A DNA stretch of 36,117 nucleotides from a virus, in IMG/VR virus record IMGVR_UViG_3300025133_000331, positions 1-36,117 of that record. One strand, given 5' to 3'. Made by a program: the position numbers and the translations under genes. Numbering within the stretch: position 1 is the stretch's first letter; each line of letters begins with the position of its first letter. This document shows, piece by piece, positions 3,153 to 30,712 of this stretch. The notes under the pieces are model-generated. The model was not told the DNA's origin. It ran no database searches and saw nothing but the letters and a program-made list of their open reading frames with translations.

Positions 3153-3345
3153 GCTTATACCTCTTATCGGGTTACGGAATTGCCCACGCGGGGATCGCGG
3201 GAGCGGTGACGGTCAGACAGTCAGACAGTCAGTCAGTTAATAATAATAATAATATATATACAGGAGGAAAGACCATGTAGTAGAGCACCGGTAACACGGG
3301 AGCATGACACTCACAGCAGGCGGTTATTATTCCTGTCTTTTACTA
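3153..3345. other. Non-coding leader with low-complexity repeats
   Basis: I find no credible ORF here on either strand. It contains the GTCAGACAG/TCAG repeat tract and an adjacent (TAA)n-(TA)n tract (3212-3260), which on the minus strand supplies an AT-rich run that could hold a -10 element for the 63-aa gene. On the plus strand a perfect AGGAGG (3262-3267) lies 7 bases before an ATG followed at once by two TAG codons, so it encodes nothing. Confidence 0.5.
3212..3260. repeat. Short tandem repeats: TCAGACAG units then TAA/TA microsatellite
   Basis: Overlapping GTCAGACAGTCAGACAGTC units run into GTCAGTCAGTTA and then (TAA)n and (TA)n. GTCAGACAGTCAGACA recurs at 3556-3571, and GACAGTCAGTCAGTTA (3224-3239) recurs exactly at 30272-30287 inside the last plus-strand gene. 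Such repeats may be slippage products or protein-binding sites in the early leader. Confidence 0.6.
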
Positions 3346-3494: not shown

Positions 3495-3686
3495 GGACTT
3501 CTCCTACTAGCTTCATACATACGCCCACTACAGACGTGTGTTGCCATCGAGGATTGTCAGACAGTCAGACAATCAGATTGGGTTTGTGGGAAGCGTACAT
3601 CATCGCATCGACACATTATTGTGGTACTAAATCCACGTATCGCTCAACAGTCAGTCCGCTTAACCCACCGATTACCCCACGTAAGG
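3495..3686. other. Non-coding leader upstream of the small zinc-ribbon ORF
   Basis: Apart from ten codons (MKLVGEVHAM) that read in frame into the small-gene region only through a TGA, I see no coding potential on either strand. It contains the 3552-3574 stem-loop. It lies between the terminator-like hairpin after the first early gene and the next early ORF, so it probably holds a promoter or an RNA leader, but no convincing -35/-10 pair is visible. Confidence 0.35.
3552..3574. repeat. Inverted repeat GATTGTC ... GACAATC
   Basis: Seven perfectly complementary bases flank a 9-base loop made of the same AGACAGTCA repeat unit seen at 3212-3230. There is no T-tract on either side, so it is more likely a protein-binding site or RNA structure than a terminator. 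Confidence 0.45.
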
Positions 3687-4087: not shown

Positions 4088-4124
4088 CATTATCAATAGT
4101 CTCAAACGCCAATTTGTCTATAAT
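4088..4124 (-). promoter_or_regulatory. Leftward early promoter-like block (left mirror copy)
   Basis: Read on the minus strand, this 37-base block begins ATTATAGACAAATTG and ends CTATTGATAATG. It matches the block at 4205-4241 on the plus strand at about 31 of 37 positions. TAGACA (one mismatch to TTGACA) lies 16 bases before TATTGATA, giving a plausible promoter aimed at the 103-aa early gene. The first 14 bases form a perfect inverted repeat with 4205-4218. Confidence 0.6.
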
Positions 4125-4204
4125 TTTCTCAAGAAAAAAATAAATACTTTGTAACTCATTGAAAACAAAGGACTTACAACGACCCCAAAATAAATCTCGA
4201 AAAT
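4125..4204. promoter_or_regulatory. AT-rich core between the mirrored promoters
   Basis: Eighty bases with an A-run (AAGAAAAAAATAAATAC) and no ORF. On the minus strand it includes GTAAGTCCTTTGTTTTC, similar to the TAAGCC..TTGATT elements at 1414 and 1537. TTGTTT followed 16 bases later by TATTTA could be a second leftward promoter. AT-richness between divergent promoters would also suit a replication origin or regulator binding, but neither is shown. Confidence 0.35.
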
Positions 4205-4241
4205 ATTATAGACAAATTGCTGTTTTAACCTATTGATACTG
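4205..4241 (+). promoter_or_regulatory. Rightward promoter-like block (right mirror copy) for the sigma-like gene
   Basis: This block begins ATTATAGACAAATTG and ends CTATTGATACTG, the plus-strand counterpart of 4088-4124. TAGACA at 4209-4214 and TATTGA at 4231-4236 are 16 bases apart. Transcription would begin near 4243, which leaves almost no leader before the ATG at 4246 but about 45 bases before the ATG at 4288. Confidence 0.6.
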
Positions 4242-4287
4242 TAAGATGAGTTCTGCCACTTTCGGCACAACCCATAAAGATAAGATA

Positions 4288-4791
4288 ATGAAACAGTTCC
4301 TACTAAATGAAATAGCACTACGCTACGACTCTAAATTACAACGACATGCTAAAGCCCAACTACTAGGCTACAGCTTACGAGATGTTGACGAAAGAGACGT
4401 AGTACAAGACGCTATAGAAATTTTCCTACAGCAAGACGCTACGAGATACAACAACGTAGTGCACGCTGTAAAGAGCCTGTACCAAATAGTAAAGTATCAG
4501 TGTAAGCCTTACATTAAACGCCGACATTTCAACGGCGAGGTTGCAGACGCAACGATAGAAGATGTTGCTAACAACGATGCACTACAACTACAAGTTATAA
4601 AAGATGTCGCACTACGGTGTAGCATTAAAGAACAATTTGCTCTTGAGCGTAAACTCATGGGCGATAAGTTAAACTCAACTCAAAGAACCCAATACGCAAG
4701 TGCCAAGAAGAAAATAGCTAGTTACCTTGAGACGCCACAAATTCACTGTATAAAATCAGACGCTTGGGAACAACTCAAGTGGGCACGATAA
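4288..4791 (+). CDS. Putative sigma-70-like (ECF-type) transcription factor
   Basis: Residues 13-80 follow the pattern of sigma factor region 2. YDSKLQRHAKAQLLGY is followed by DVDERDVVQDAIEIF, comparable with the DxxDVVQEAF signature of ECF sigma factors, and then by SLYQIVKYQCKPYIKRR, comparable with WLYRIAxNxAxxYLxRR. The C-terminal half has a possible helix-turn-helix (KLMGDKLNSTQRTQYASAK, about 122-140) in the region 4 position, but it is divergent. The frame is open from 4246; I prefer 4288 because the promoter block would leave 4246 nearly leaderless. As first gene of the late operon it could direct host RNA polymerase to late promoters. A small terminase, often located before TerL, is the main alternative. 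Confidence 0.55.
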   Translation: MKQFLLNEIALRYDSKLQRHAKAQLLGYSLRDVDERDVVQDAIEIFLQQDATRYNNVVHAVKSLYQIVKYQCKPYIKRRHFNGEVADATIEDVANNDALQLQVIKDVALRCSIKEQFALERKLMGDKLNSTQRTQYASAKKKIASYLETPQIHCIKSDAWEQLKWAR

Positions 4792-4859: not shown

Positions 4860-4906
4860 CGGTCGCCCCCCGCCCCAAGCCACCGCGCTAAAAAAGACCC
4901 CCTTTG

Positions 4907-4915
4907 TGCTATAAT
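4907..4915 (+). promoter_or_regulatory. Extended -10 promoter upstream of terL
   Basis: TGC immediately followed by TATAAT is an extended -10 element matching the sigma-70 consensus, ending five bases before the first ATG of terL. The -35 position (GCTAAA) is poor, as expected for extended -10 promoters. Transcription would start at about 4921-4923, so the terL message is either leaderless or starts translation at the next ATG. Confidence 0.6.
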
Positions 4916-4920
4916 ACCCC

Positions 4921-6489
4921 ATGCAAAGCGAAGACATACGTAAGAACATAGAGGCAATGTGGCTAGATCCACTCGAATTTGGCCGTGCCCTCGGCTATAA
5001 GGGGGTCGCCGGCCGCAAGCAGTTCGGCCCCTTCCACGATGACATGATGCGCCACGCCTATTCGCAACCGCGCACCAGCACCATCGTCCCTCGCGGCCAC
5101 GCCAAGAGTACCTGCCTCACGGTCATCGACACATGTTGGCACCTCCTCCGACATCCCGAGAGCCGCAACCTCCTGGCCTCCGCCACCCTTGACCTCGCCA
5201 AGAAACTGGTCGGCGAAGTCCGCGACCGCCTGAACGGCGACATCGAACTGGCCCCCGGGGTCTTCCTCCCCGTCCGCGAAGTCTTCCCGTGGATCGCGCC
5301 CACCGGCGACCGCCGCAAGTCCGGCCCTACGGACAAGCTGAACATCTCGGGCCGCGCCGGCACCGGCCGTGAGCCCTCCGTCTTCGCCGCCTCGGTCGAG
5401 TCCAACCTGGCGGGAAACCACCCGACCCGCGCCGTCATCGACGACCCGGCCAACGAGCAGAACAGCCGGACCTACTCGCGCCGACAAAAAGTAATCGAGT
5501 TCATTGAAACTCTCGAGCCGCTGATGTACGCGCCCGACAGCCCCATCCGCCACATCGGAACCCCGTGGGCTTTCTCCGACGTCACCAACTATCTCACCGA
5601 CCGGCCCGACTGGTCTCAGTTCCGCTACTCCGTCTGGGACGGCGCCAACCCCGACACCGGCGAGAAGGACGGCGCCGGACCCGGCCCTGAAGGGGGGTGG
5701 CCTCTGTGTCCTTCATTCCTAACGGGCGACGAGATAATAGAAAAGGCCGCCGCGCTGTCAAAGCAATTCTTCGCCGCCCAGTACCTCTGCAACCCCGTCC
5801 CCGCCGAGGAAGCCATCTTCGAGCCCGGACTTGTCGAGGCCGCCACCCATACCTACGACACTCCCGCCGACCTGCCCGACGGTCCCGAGATTCTACTCTA
5901 CGATCCCGTTGCCCGAATCAGTGGGGTCACCGGCGACCTCAACGCCATCATCATCTTCAAGGCACTAACAGCACGGGCACTCGGCCTCAAGGGATTCCCC
6001 GACGACCGCAACATCTTCATACCAATCTACGCCCACGAAATAGCAGGCGGCGCAGACCTAGCCGCGCAACATATTGAAGAGCTTGCCGCCGAACGTAAGG
6101 CCCTAAAGAGTATATGGATTGAACAAGTAGCGAGCCAATCTCTCTTCGGTCCGTGGTTAGAAGAAAGAGGCAAAATAAAAGGAGCGAGAATACGGGGGCA
6201 AAAGATAGGAACTTCATCACTTGCTTATCGGCTAATGGGGCTGCAAACTGGAATGCGCAAGGGATATATTCTCTTCCCCAAGAAATTCCCCGGCTCCGAA
6301 CTTCTGCGCCGCCGCCTAATCGAATTCCCCAAATCCGAATCCGATGACCTAGTATCCGCCTTTGCCCTGCTAAGTACCCACCTAGAGCGACGCGGAGCCC
6401 TCCCAGGTGTTGACTATGGCACACCGCTACCGTATAATCTCAACCCTGGTGCCATGACCTCCTCTACCTCCGGAGGTTGGCCCGGCTAA
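4921..6489 (+). CDS. terL: Terminase large subunit (packaging ATPase/nuclease)
   Basis: This is the motor that pumps DNA into the procapsid and cuts concatemers. The ATPase domain has a Walker A variant VPRGHAKST (residues 56-64) and Walker B RAVIDDPANEQNS (170-182, catalytic region D174/D175). The C-terminal RNase H-like nuclease shows LLYDP (D328) and DDLVSAF (D475/D476). The length of 522 aa is normal for T7/podovirus-like enzymes. The first two thirds of the gene is far more G/C-rich than the rest of the window and favours C-ending codons; around 6060-6100 it shifts back to the resident style, suggesting a recombinant gene. The start at 4921 adjoins the -10 box; the ATG at 4957 (MWLDPLEFG) is an alternative. 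Confidence 0.93.
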   Translation: MQSEDIRKNIEAMWLDPLEFGRALGYKGVAGRKQFGPFHDDMMRHAYSQPRTSTIVPRGHAKSTCLTVIDTCWHLLRHPESRNLLASATLDLAKKLVGEVRDRLNGDIELAPGVFLPVREVFPWIAPTGDRRKSGPTDKLNISGRAGTGREPSVFAASVESNLAGNHPTRAVIDDPANEQNSRTYSRRQKVIEFIETLEPLMYAPDSPIRHIGTPWAFSDVTNYLTDRPDWSQFRYSVWDGANPDTGEKDGAGPGPEGGWPLCPSFLTGDEIIEKAAALSKQFFAAQYLCNPVPAEEAIFEPGLVEAATHTYDTPADLPDGPEILLYDPVARISGVTGDLNAIIIFKALTARALGLKGFPDDRNIFIPIYAHEIAGGADLAAQHIEELAAERKALKSIWIEQVASQSLFGPWLEERGKIKGARIRGQKIGTSSLAYRLMGLQTGMRKGYILFPKKFPGSELLRRRLIEFPKSESDDLVSAFALLSTHLERRGALPGVDYGTPLPYNLNPGAMTSSTSGGWPG

Positions 6490-29330: not shown

Positions 29331-29825
29331 ATGAAGGTACTAGGAATAGACCCAGGCTACCGCAACCTCGGACTCACGGTTGTTGACCTTAACTCTATGA
29401 CTATACTACATTCAGAAAATATGACAGTCGGGCACTCCGATAACATCATATCGTTCGTAAAATTTTTATACCCGAAGCTTACCCAACTACATAAGGAGTA
29501 TAACTTTGCGGGCATAGGGGCGGAGTCACCGCCTTTCATCATGCGCCAGATCAAGACAACCGCCGGCCTTTGGTCTGTGGTTTCTATCATCATGTCGTGG
29601 GCTTTCGGGCGGGACATTCCTTTCCGTCACGCATCTCCCATCTCGCTTAAGCGTGCGGTTGTAAAGTACAACGGGGACGTTTGGGATAAAAAGAAGATAC
29701 CAAAGAAAGCTGAGGTTAAGGTAGTAATTAAAAAACTATACGGTACCTGCTGTAAGACATCACACGAAGACGATGCTGCACTAGCTGCCGTCGCAACCTT
29801 CGGAGAGATACATGCCCCAACCTAA
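29331..29825 (+). CDS. RuvC-like Holliday-junction resolvase
   Basis: An RNase H-fold endonuclease that would resolve branched replication and recombination intermediates before packaging. The acidic catalytic residues are in place: D7 in GIDPGYRNLG, E65 in GIGAESPPF, and H145/D148 in SHEDDAALAAVA, matching the D/H-x-x-D end motif of RuvC. PISLKRAVVKYNG and the basic KKIPKKAEVKVVIKK stretch would bind junction DNA. The length of 164 aa is close to bacterial RuvC (about 173). Its position in the late operon beside packaging and lysis genes, not with the replication genes on the other strand, suggests debranching of concatemers late in infection. Confidence 0.88.
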   Translation: MKVLGIDPGYRNLGLTVVDLNSMTILHSENMTVGHSDNIISFVKFLYPKLTQLHKEYNFAGIGAESPPFIMRQIKTTAGLWSVVSIIMSWAFGRDIPFRHASPISLKRAVVKYNGDVWDKKKIPKKAEVKVVIKKLYGTCCKTSHEDDAALAAVATFGEIHAPT

Positions 29826-30246
29826 GCCACAACCCACACCTAGATTGAAGAAGCTAGACACACCCGAGGAGCTGGCCACCGCCCGCTTTGGTAAGACTGA
29901 CGGCCTAGCTATTGTCCAGCAGACCACGCTGGAACTTGCCGAACACTACGCCAAAAGATTTGAGTTGGATGTAAATGATTCGGAAGTATGTTTGATAACC
30001 TCTGCTCTCGCGTTTACACGACACAAAGAATTCCTGTTATTTGTAGAGTGTGAGCGTGATTTGCAGCGGCGAGTACTTGAACATCCTAGTGCGGGGTACG
30101 GAGAGGTATTGTTCTCCCTTACTAGAACGGGGGCGCACAACGACATCCATAAGGAGATCGACCGCCTCCACCTTCGCGCCAACAAGTACATCAAGGAACT
30201 AAAAGTATTACAACGTGAGAACACTGACCATAATAAGCGTAGCTAA
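29812..30246 (+). CDS. Late-operon protein of unknown function, 144 aa
   Basis: It starts 14 bases inside the end of the resolvase gene with a Pro/Gln-rich leader (MPQPKPQPTPRLKKLDTPEE) and then is helical: GLAIVQQTTLELAEHYAKRF, EVCLITSALAFTRHKEFLLF and a long C-terminal helix (IHKEIDRLHLRANKYIKEL). I do not recognise the family. Helical content, a basic C-terminus and coupling to the resolvase would suit a DNA-binding partner or even a displaced small terminase, but nothing in the sequence proves this. Its 3' end overlaps the next gene by 32 bases. Confidence 0.7.
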   Translation: MPQPKPQPTPRLKKLDTPEELATARFGKTDGLAIVQQTTLELAEHYAKRFELDVNDSEVCLITSALAFTRHKEFLLFVECERDLQRRVLEHPSAGYGEVLFSLTRTGAHNDIHKEIDRLHLRANKYIKELKVLQRENTDHNKRS

Positions 30247-30712
30247 CGACGACCAAGACGTCACAAAATTCGACAGTCAGTCAGTTAGTTGGGACGTTGT
30301 TGAACATAAAATTTTAAACACGCGCGGCGGTATCTATGAGAAGCACGCGGTAAAAAACTACGCAATGCAGAGCGCAAAGGGCGACTACATCCTGTGGACG
30401 GACAGCTACTGCACCAACCCCAACATACACACCATCGACGTCACTAGCTACGACAGTCTGTGGACGTTGAAAGACCACCTGAACTCACACCCTGCACGCG
30501 CCTCAATGTTCATCGTGCCCACTGCCGAGCAGAAGCTAGTGGCGTGGCGCAACATTCCTGCAGCCGACTACGACGTACGGCTACGGCTCTTGGACATGGG
30601 GTGCTCACCCCTCATACTCGAGGCCAGGGGTGGTAGCAGGGTTTGGCTAGACAACGCGCTCAGCATTCGGGACGCCTATCGACATCGTGAGACGCTTCCT
30701 CGTGAGTGGTAA
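30215..30712 (+). CDS. Glycosyltransferase family 2-like protein, short (165 aa)
   Basis: The start (GTG; MRTLTIISVANDDQDVTKFD) and the segment KHAVKNYAMQSAKGDYILWTD resemble the nucleotide-sugar-binding half of GT-A fold glycosyltransferases: first strand, then the helix-strand leading to the metal-binding Asp motif (ILWTDSYC, in place of DxD). At 165 residues it lacks most of the acceptor half, so it may be a minimal or degraded enzyme, or only structurally related. It is the last plus-strand gene and converges on the minus-strand HExxH gene, overlapping it by 53 bases. GACAGTCAGTCAGTTA within it duplicates early-leader sequence. Confidence 0.5.
   Translation: MRTLTIISVANDDQDVTKFDSQSVSWDVVEHKILNTRGGIYEKHAVKNYAMQSAKGDYILWTDSYCTNPNIHTIDVTSYDSLWTLKDHLNSHPARASMFIVPTAEQKLVAWRNIPAADYDVRLRLLDMGCSPLILEARGGSRVWLDNALSIRDAYRHRETLPREW

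What the first reader, a model, noticed from the sequence alone, without database searches (positions are those of the whole stretch)
4246..4791. A sigma-region-2-like protein heads the late operon
The segment DVDERDVVQDAIEIF followed by SLYQIVKYQCKPYIKRR follows the ECF sigma signature DxxDVVQEAF ... WLYRIAxNxAxxYLxRR in order and spacing. The protein has no obvious similarity to known phage late activators (T4 gp55, lambda Q) and lacks a clear region 4. Since no phage RNA polymerase is visible, a phage-encoded minimal sigma could switch host polymerase to the structural genes. The family is recognised by signature; the regulatory role is inference.
Basis: partly seen in the sequence, partly recalled or inferred. 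Interest (0 to 1): 0.75.

Follow-up and report, generated by a model that had tools for sequence, protein, structure and literature searches.

The report
Divergent phage sigma factor before terminase
A small gene beside the DNA-packaging gene of an uncultured phage most likely encodes a heavily altered sigma factor, the kind of protein that redirects the host's RNA polymerase, and related phages carry very different sigma-like proteins at the same spot.

Summary
The ORF 4246-4791 (181 aa) and both quoted segments are real (residues 46-60 and 77-93). No Pfam or PHROG family reaches significance. Three lines support a sigma-70-family (ECF-like) protein. First, residues 21-99 align to region 2 of an ECF profile better than 400 of 400 shuffles and better than any other window protein. 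Second, the gene just upstream of terL in about 20 related phages is a different, mostly unannotated protein; one is a recognised sigma factor (PHROG E 1e-8), and the profile of the largest group finds ECF sigmas first in the whole PDB. Third, a family-guided AlphaFold model matches sigma region 4 over residues 100-171. So a region-4-like part is probably present, but 9-11 residues shorter than usual, which fits loss of one helix of the helix-turn-helix. Region 2 has sequence support only. No T7-type polymerase was found in 11 records (positive control rang). The gene is not the head of the late operon: it differs in composition, has its own symmetric upstream control region, and terL has its own promoter-like site. 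A late-gene switch acting on host polymerase is the likeliest role but is inferred. New variant of a known kind (cf. phiEco32 gp36, 7-11 gp47).

The parts
4246..4791 (+). CDS of the sigma-like protein P0001, 181 aa (a second possible start is Met15 at 4288)
4306..4542 (+). region-2-like part, residues 21-99 (includes both quoted segments)
   Evidence: HHalign to ECF profile, 0/400 shuffles; structure model not confident here
4543..4758 (+). region-4-like part, residues 100-171, 9-11 residues shorter than the sigma4 domains it matches
   Evidence: AF2 with alignment A5, pLDDT 72-95 for about 111-160; VIA-align Z 7.6 to sigma4
4088..4134 (+). left arm of an imperfect inverted repeat (38/47 identical), holds CAATTTGTCTATAAT at 4110-4124
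4195..4241 (-). right arm of the same inverted repeat, same 15-mer on the minus strand at 4219-4205
4867..4885 (+). conserved GC-rich element (CCCCCGCCCCAAGCCACCG), single copy, between the sigma-like gene and terL in nearly all relatives with that stretch
4905..4915 (+). extended -10-like site TGTGCTATAAT just before terL, no recognisable -35
   Evidence: consensus match only
4921..6489 (+). terminase large subunit, anchor used to find relatives
   Evidence: phrog_38, E 1.5e-46; 63 relatives

Best explanation
The gene encodes a strongly diverged sigma-70-family protein of the ECF layout: a region-2-like N-terminal half (binding to the host RNA polymerase clamp and the -10 element) and a shortened region-4-like C-terminal half. 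It is probably expressed with the early genes from the symmetric control region to its left, then competes with the host sigma for core polymerase and directs it to phage promoters, among them that of terL and the structural genes; because the phage has no polymerase of its own, this would be its temporal switch. Shown here: the ORF, the region-2 sequence signal, the region-4 model match, positional orthologs that are sigma-like (one a recognised sigma factor), absence of a T7-type polymerase. Inferred: binding to core, promoter choice, timing, and the late-switch role.
For: Region 2. Positional orthologs: L016/L017 hit phrog_1740 RNA polymerase sigma factor at 1e-8 and Pfam Sigma70_r4_2 below its cut-off; core family vs ECF profile E 5e-8; core profile A4 (without P0001) searched against all PDB chains gives E. 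coli sigma-E 1or7 first (E 0.004), with ECF sigmas on the first five ranks; A3 (with P0001) matches sigma-E over both regions, E 0.0017. Eleven positional orthologs beat all their shuffles against the ECF profile (L075, L014, L016, L053, L048, L051, L044, L041, L043, L087, L046). Structure: Foldseek's first 14 PDB rows for the model are sigma factors (none significant, E 0.65 to 2), and the first 40 VIA rows are sigma chains (one of them titled only RNA-guided transcription complex), residues about 100-171, Z up to 7.6. No T7-type RNAP. Function precedent: PMC8948821.
Against: P0001 alone has no significant family, PDB or PHROG hit. The single-sequence model is useless (pLDDT 42). The better model was guided by relatives that carry sigma4, so the match is partly circular, and region 2 stays under pLDDT 50. 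P0001 does not score significantly against the phage family alone, so kinship with the positional orthologs rests on position and on common similarity to ECF sigmas. The alignment-A5 profile gives only weak PDB hits (best E 0.09). The terL promoter-like site resembles an ordinary host extended -10 promoter, and no motif shared by the late promoters of the window was found.
Confidence: 0.62

Rival explanations
1. Small terminase subunit: a DNA-binding protein encoded just before terL that recognises the conserved GC-rich element as packaging site and hands the DNA to TerL.
For: Position directly upstream of terL; a conserved, single-copy element lies next to it; one positional ortholog (L014) has very weak small-terminase PHROG hits (E 0.057); no small terminase is recognised elsewhere in the window.
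Against: The C-terminal placement of the helix-turn-helix-like part and the region-2-like N-terminus are sigma order, not that of small terminases (established knowledge). The gene is hypervariable (88% identical TerL in L004, yet a non-alignable protein) while TerL and the element are conserved. It lies on the strand opposite to terL in L014, L067 and L075. A well conserved 144-aa late protein (29812-30246, 53-63% identity in six relatives) is a better candidate by conservation. L016 is a recognised sigma.
Confidence: 0.12
2. A sigma-like protein that acts on host RNA polymerase mainly as an inhibitor or decoy (host shut-off, or redirection of host genes), not as the activator of late genes.
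For: Shortened region 4 and extreme variability fit an arms-race protein; terL already has a host-like extended -10 site; phage sigma factors that redirect host programmes are known (PMC9429907, listed).
Against: The gene is kept at one place beside terL in about 20 phages; no other transcription switch was recognised and there is no T7-type polymerase.
Confidence: 0.14
3. Another helix-turn-helix regulator (FixJ/LuxR-like output domain or repressor) working with host sigma-70, for example on the symmetric control region.
For: FixJ appears among weak profile and fold hits; the upstream control region is symmetric like an operator.
Against: FixJ ranks below 40 sigma rows (Z 4.4 against 7.6); the N-terminal half shows the region-2 signature.
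Confidence: 0.08

Closest known systems
phiEco32 gp36, phage-encoded sigma factor (PMC8948821)
   Same: Phage without own polymerase uses a phage sigma on host core; its promoters have a single element (tAATGTAtA); sigmas of the two phiEco32-like subgroups are only 15% identical, as here the sigma diverges far faster than the rest.
   Different: There it is a middle gene in the replication cluster of a larger podovirus; here the gene sits beside terL, and region 4 looks shortened.
Phage 7-11 gp47, late sigma factor (PMC8948821)
   Same: Late sigma for host core RNA polymerase, acts on promoters before the late genes.
   Different: Bipartite promoters GTAAtg-(16)-aCTA shown by experiment; no such repeated motif found in this window.
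T4 gp55 (from knowledge, not searched)
   Same: Sigma-family late factor lacking a normal region 4 and recognising a -10 element only.
   Different: No sequence link tested; gp55 needs gp33 and the sliding clamp, neither of which was looked for here.
Bacterial ECF sigma factors (E. coli sigma-E, AlgU, M. tuberculosis SigL)
   Same: Best matches of the family profile and of the model, sigma2-sigma4 layout, similar length.
   Different: P0001 itself is below every curated cut-off; region 4 lacks 9-11 residues; no anti-sigma partner was looked for.

Membership tests
Sigma-70 family, ECF group | region 2 sequence (DxxDLVQExF ... WLYxIAxNxxxDxxRR) | tested here: met
   Weak but above chance: 0/400 and 0/150 shuffles, best of 35 window proteins, residues 21-99
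Sigma-70 family, ECF group | sigma2 helical fold | tested here: inconclusive
   pLDDT below 50 in residues 63-107 and most of 1-60
Sigma-70 family, ECF group | region 4 fold with complete helix-turn-helix | tested here: inconclusive
   Residues 100-171 match sigma4, Z up to 7.6, but that is under the level the aligner's notes trust for helical folds, and 9-11 residues shorter; model guided by relatives
Sigma-70 family, ECF group | curated family cut-off (Pfam, PHROG) reached | tested here: not met
   No Sigma70 Pfam hit; phrog_12988 (unknown function) at 0.019 only
Sigma-70 family, ECF group | binds core RNA polymerase and directs promoter-specific initiation | not testable with these tools
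   needs biochemistry
Small terminase (TerS) | match to a TerS family | tested here: not met
   No TerS family for P0001 in Pfam or PHROGs
Small terminase (TerS) | N-terminal helix-turn-helix | tested here: inconclusive
   The helix-turn-helix-like part is C-terminal in the alignments and in the model, but the N-terminal half of the model is not reliable
Small terminase (TerS) | position next to terL | tested here: met
   129 bases upstream of terL; but on the other strand in three relatives
Small terminase (TerS) | oligomeric ring that binds the packaging site | not testable with these tools
   needs biochemistry

The most novel reading that the evidence does not exclude
These phages carry a fast-evolving class of sigma factors that have lost one helix of the -35-reading helix-turn-helix and work as -10-only factors, and each phage lineage swaps or remodels its sigma while keeping TerL, so that promoter specificity is re-invented repeatedly at one fixed locus.
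Probability: 0.3. Interest if true: 0.65.

Novelty: new variant of a known kind. Interest (0 to 1): 0.5.

Why it matters
It would explain how a widespread, uncultured group of podovirus-like phages without their own RNA polymerase times its genes, and it gives a set of sigma-like proteins that standard annotation misses. The series from complete to shortened region 4 within one gene position would be a natural experiment on how much of a sigma factor is needed for promoter recognition.

Tried and rejected
Single-sequence AlphaFold of P0001: pLDDT 42, not used. Direct tblastn and IMG/VR search with P0001: only its own near-identical copy. P0001 against the phage-family profile alone: not significant. 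Search for a promoter motif common to the window's late genes by pairwise comparison of intergenic stretches: nothing above shuffles; TATAAT is not over-represented (21 found, 18 expected); terL upstream against the inverted-repeat arms: only a marginal match TTTGT(G)CTATAAT in the window, none convincing in relatives. The GC-rich element as a repeated sigma promoter: rejected, it is single copy. The 144-aa protein 29812-30246 as recognisable small terminase: no family or PDB match, stays a guess. L087 in a Gemmatimonadota MAG as host clue: rejected, terL is cut by a run of N and the portal lies 0.5 Mb away. No terL-upstream sigma-like gene was recognised in L063-L065, L077/L078/L085, L079, L081/L084, and L004, L005, L012, L023, L035, L039, L042, L061, L067 do not pass the ECF shuffle test cleanly on their own, so for these sigma identity is by position or family only.

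Full report
Observation. A second, independent contig carries the gene without a single difference (4 differences in 6444 bases around it). P0001 alone hits no Pfam or PHROG family with significance and no PDB chain, and direct searches find only its own copy.

Is the signature more than chance? I made a profile from 21 ECF sigma factors of one bacterial genome found with Pfam Sigma70_r2. P0001 aligns to its region 2 with residues 21-99, in order and without large gaps, score 21.1; none of 400 shuffles reaches it. It is the best of 35 window proteins. Among 268 real ORFs of this phage group it ranks 6th, and six of the top ten are genes upstream of terL. With phage sigma-like proteins added to the profile, the score rises to 23.8, 0 of 150 shuffles. 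So the signal is real but faint for the single sequence (HHalign probability 4-10%).

Neighbours in relatives. TerL (phrog_38) finds 17 and then 63 related contigs in IMG/VR. In most of those with enough DNA upstream, about 20 distinct phages by my own grouping, a protein-coding gene of this kind lies just before terL, and its product differs greatly: even L004, whose TerL is 88% identical to the window's, has a protein that does not align. One type (L016/L017) is recognised as RNA polymerase sigma factor by PHROGs (1e-8) and weakly by Sigma70 region 4 models. The largest type (L041-L051, L087 and others) gives, as a profile that does not contain P0001, E. coli sigma-E as the first hit in the whole PDB (E 0.004) with ECF sigmas on the first five ranks, and matches the ECF profile at E 5e-8. 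Eleven of these proteins individually beat all their shuffles; others (L004, L005, L012, L023, L035, L039, L042, L061, L067) do not, or not cleanly, and count only by position or family.

Structure. AlphaFold2 on P0001 alone fails (pLDDT 42). With an alignment of 13 positional orthologs (A5) residues of about 111-160 reach pLDDT 72-95, the N-terminal half stays below 50. Foldseek's first 14 PDB rows are sigma factors, none with significant E; VIA-align places residues 100-171 on sigma region 4 with Z up to 7.6 and 3.2 A over 72 residues, and the first 40 rows are sigma chains (one is titled only RNA-guided transcription complex). That Z is below what the tool's notes trust for helical folds, and the alignment contains proteins with sigma4, so this is supporting, not independent, evidence. 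In the matched ECF chains the domain is 9-11 residues longer (for example 1or7 121-190 against model 108-168; 4nqw 123-185 against 111-162), which together with alignments A4 and A5 suggests that the first helix of the helix-turn-helix is missing in P0001 and in the L041/L044/L087 type, but present in L016, L014, L048, L049, L051 and L075.

Context. No T7-type RNA polymerase is found in the window or ten related records of 39-46 kb; the same search rings at 3.5e-86 in phage PmP19. The gene has GC3 37% against 71% in terL. To its left, between it and the leftward early genes, lies an imperfect inverted repeat (arms 4088-4134 and 4195-4241, 38/47 identical), and the same arrangement with different sequence is seen upstream of the gene in about ten relatives (alignment score 46-86 against at most 28 in shuffles). 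This looks like one control sequence serving both directions, so that the gene would be expressed with the early genes (inference). To its right, 129 bases separate it from terL and hold a conserved, single-copy GC-rich element and, directly before terL, TGTGCTATAAT. In three relatives the gene lies on the strand opposite to terL. It therefore does not head the late operon in the strict sense.

Mechanism. Most likely a sigma-family protein that redirects host RNA polymerase, as phiEco32 gp36 and 7-11 gp47 do by experiment (PMC8948821). That precedent also shows that phage sigmas of one group may share only 15% identity and use unrelated promoters, in one case with a single element. A shortened region 4 would fit promoters without a -35 element, and the terL site has none that I can recognise; but the site is also a good host extended -10 promoter, and no phage-specific motif was found, so the late-switch role stays an inference. 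The main rival, small terminase, is weakened by domain order, variability against a conserved TerL and element, strand changes, and the existence of a conserved 144-aa late protein that could fill that role, but it is not excluded.

Verdict. Sequence observation confirmed; interpretation partly supported; new variant of a known kind.

Noticed in passing
4867-4885; e.g. L044:4894-4912, L010:1-15: Strongly conserved GC-rich element (consensus CCCCCGCCCC(C/A)(T/A)(A/G)GCCACCG) between the sigma-like gene and terL, one copy in each of 47 loci (some are copies of one contig); several contigs (L010, L018, L059) begin inside it or at its edge. Packaging or genome-end site is a guess; an assembly break at a GC-rich hairpin is the alternative.
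   Followed up: partly
4088-4134 and 4195-4241; same place in L012, L023, L035, L041, L043, L044, L046, L049, L051, L087: Long imperfect inverted repeat upstream of the sigma-like gene; arms alike within a phage but different between phages.
   Followed up: partly
29812-30246 (+): 144-aa late protein, 53-63% identical in six relatives, no family or PDB match; candidate small terminase by conservation only.
   Followed up: partly
L023 (7261/7445), L026 (13648/13831), similar sequence in window within 1365-1691: ACCTTTCGACCTATT-type sequence as inverted pairs about 185 bases apart in two relatives.
   Followed up: no
3212-3240, 3556-3571, 30272-30287: Short GTCAGACAGTCAGAC / GACAGTCAGTCAGTT repeats in and near intergenic stretches.
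   Followed up: no
L087 (CP070815.1): Pieces of a related phage scaffolded with N runs into a Gemmatimonadota MAG, terL cut and portal far away; the host cannot be inferred from it.
   Followed up: partly
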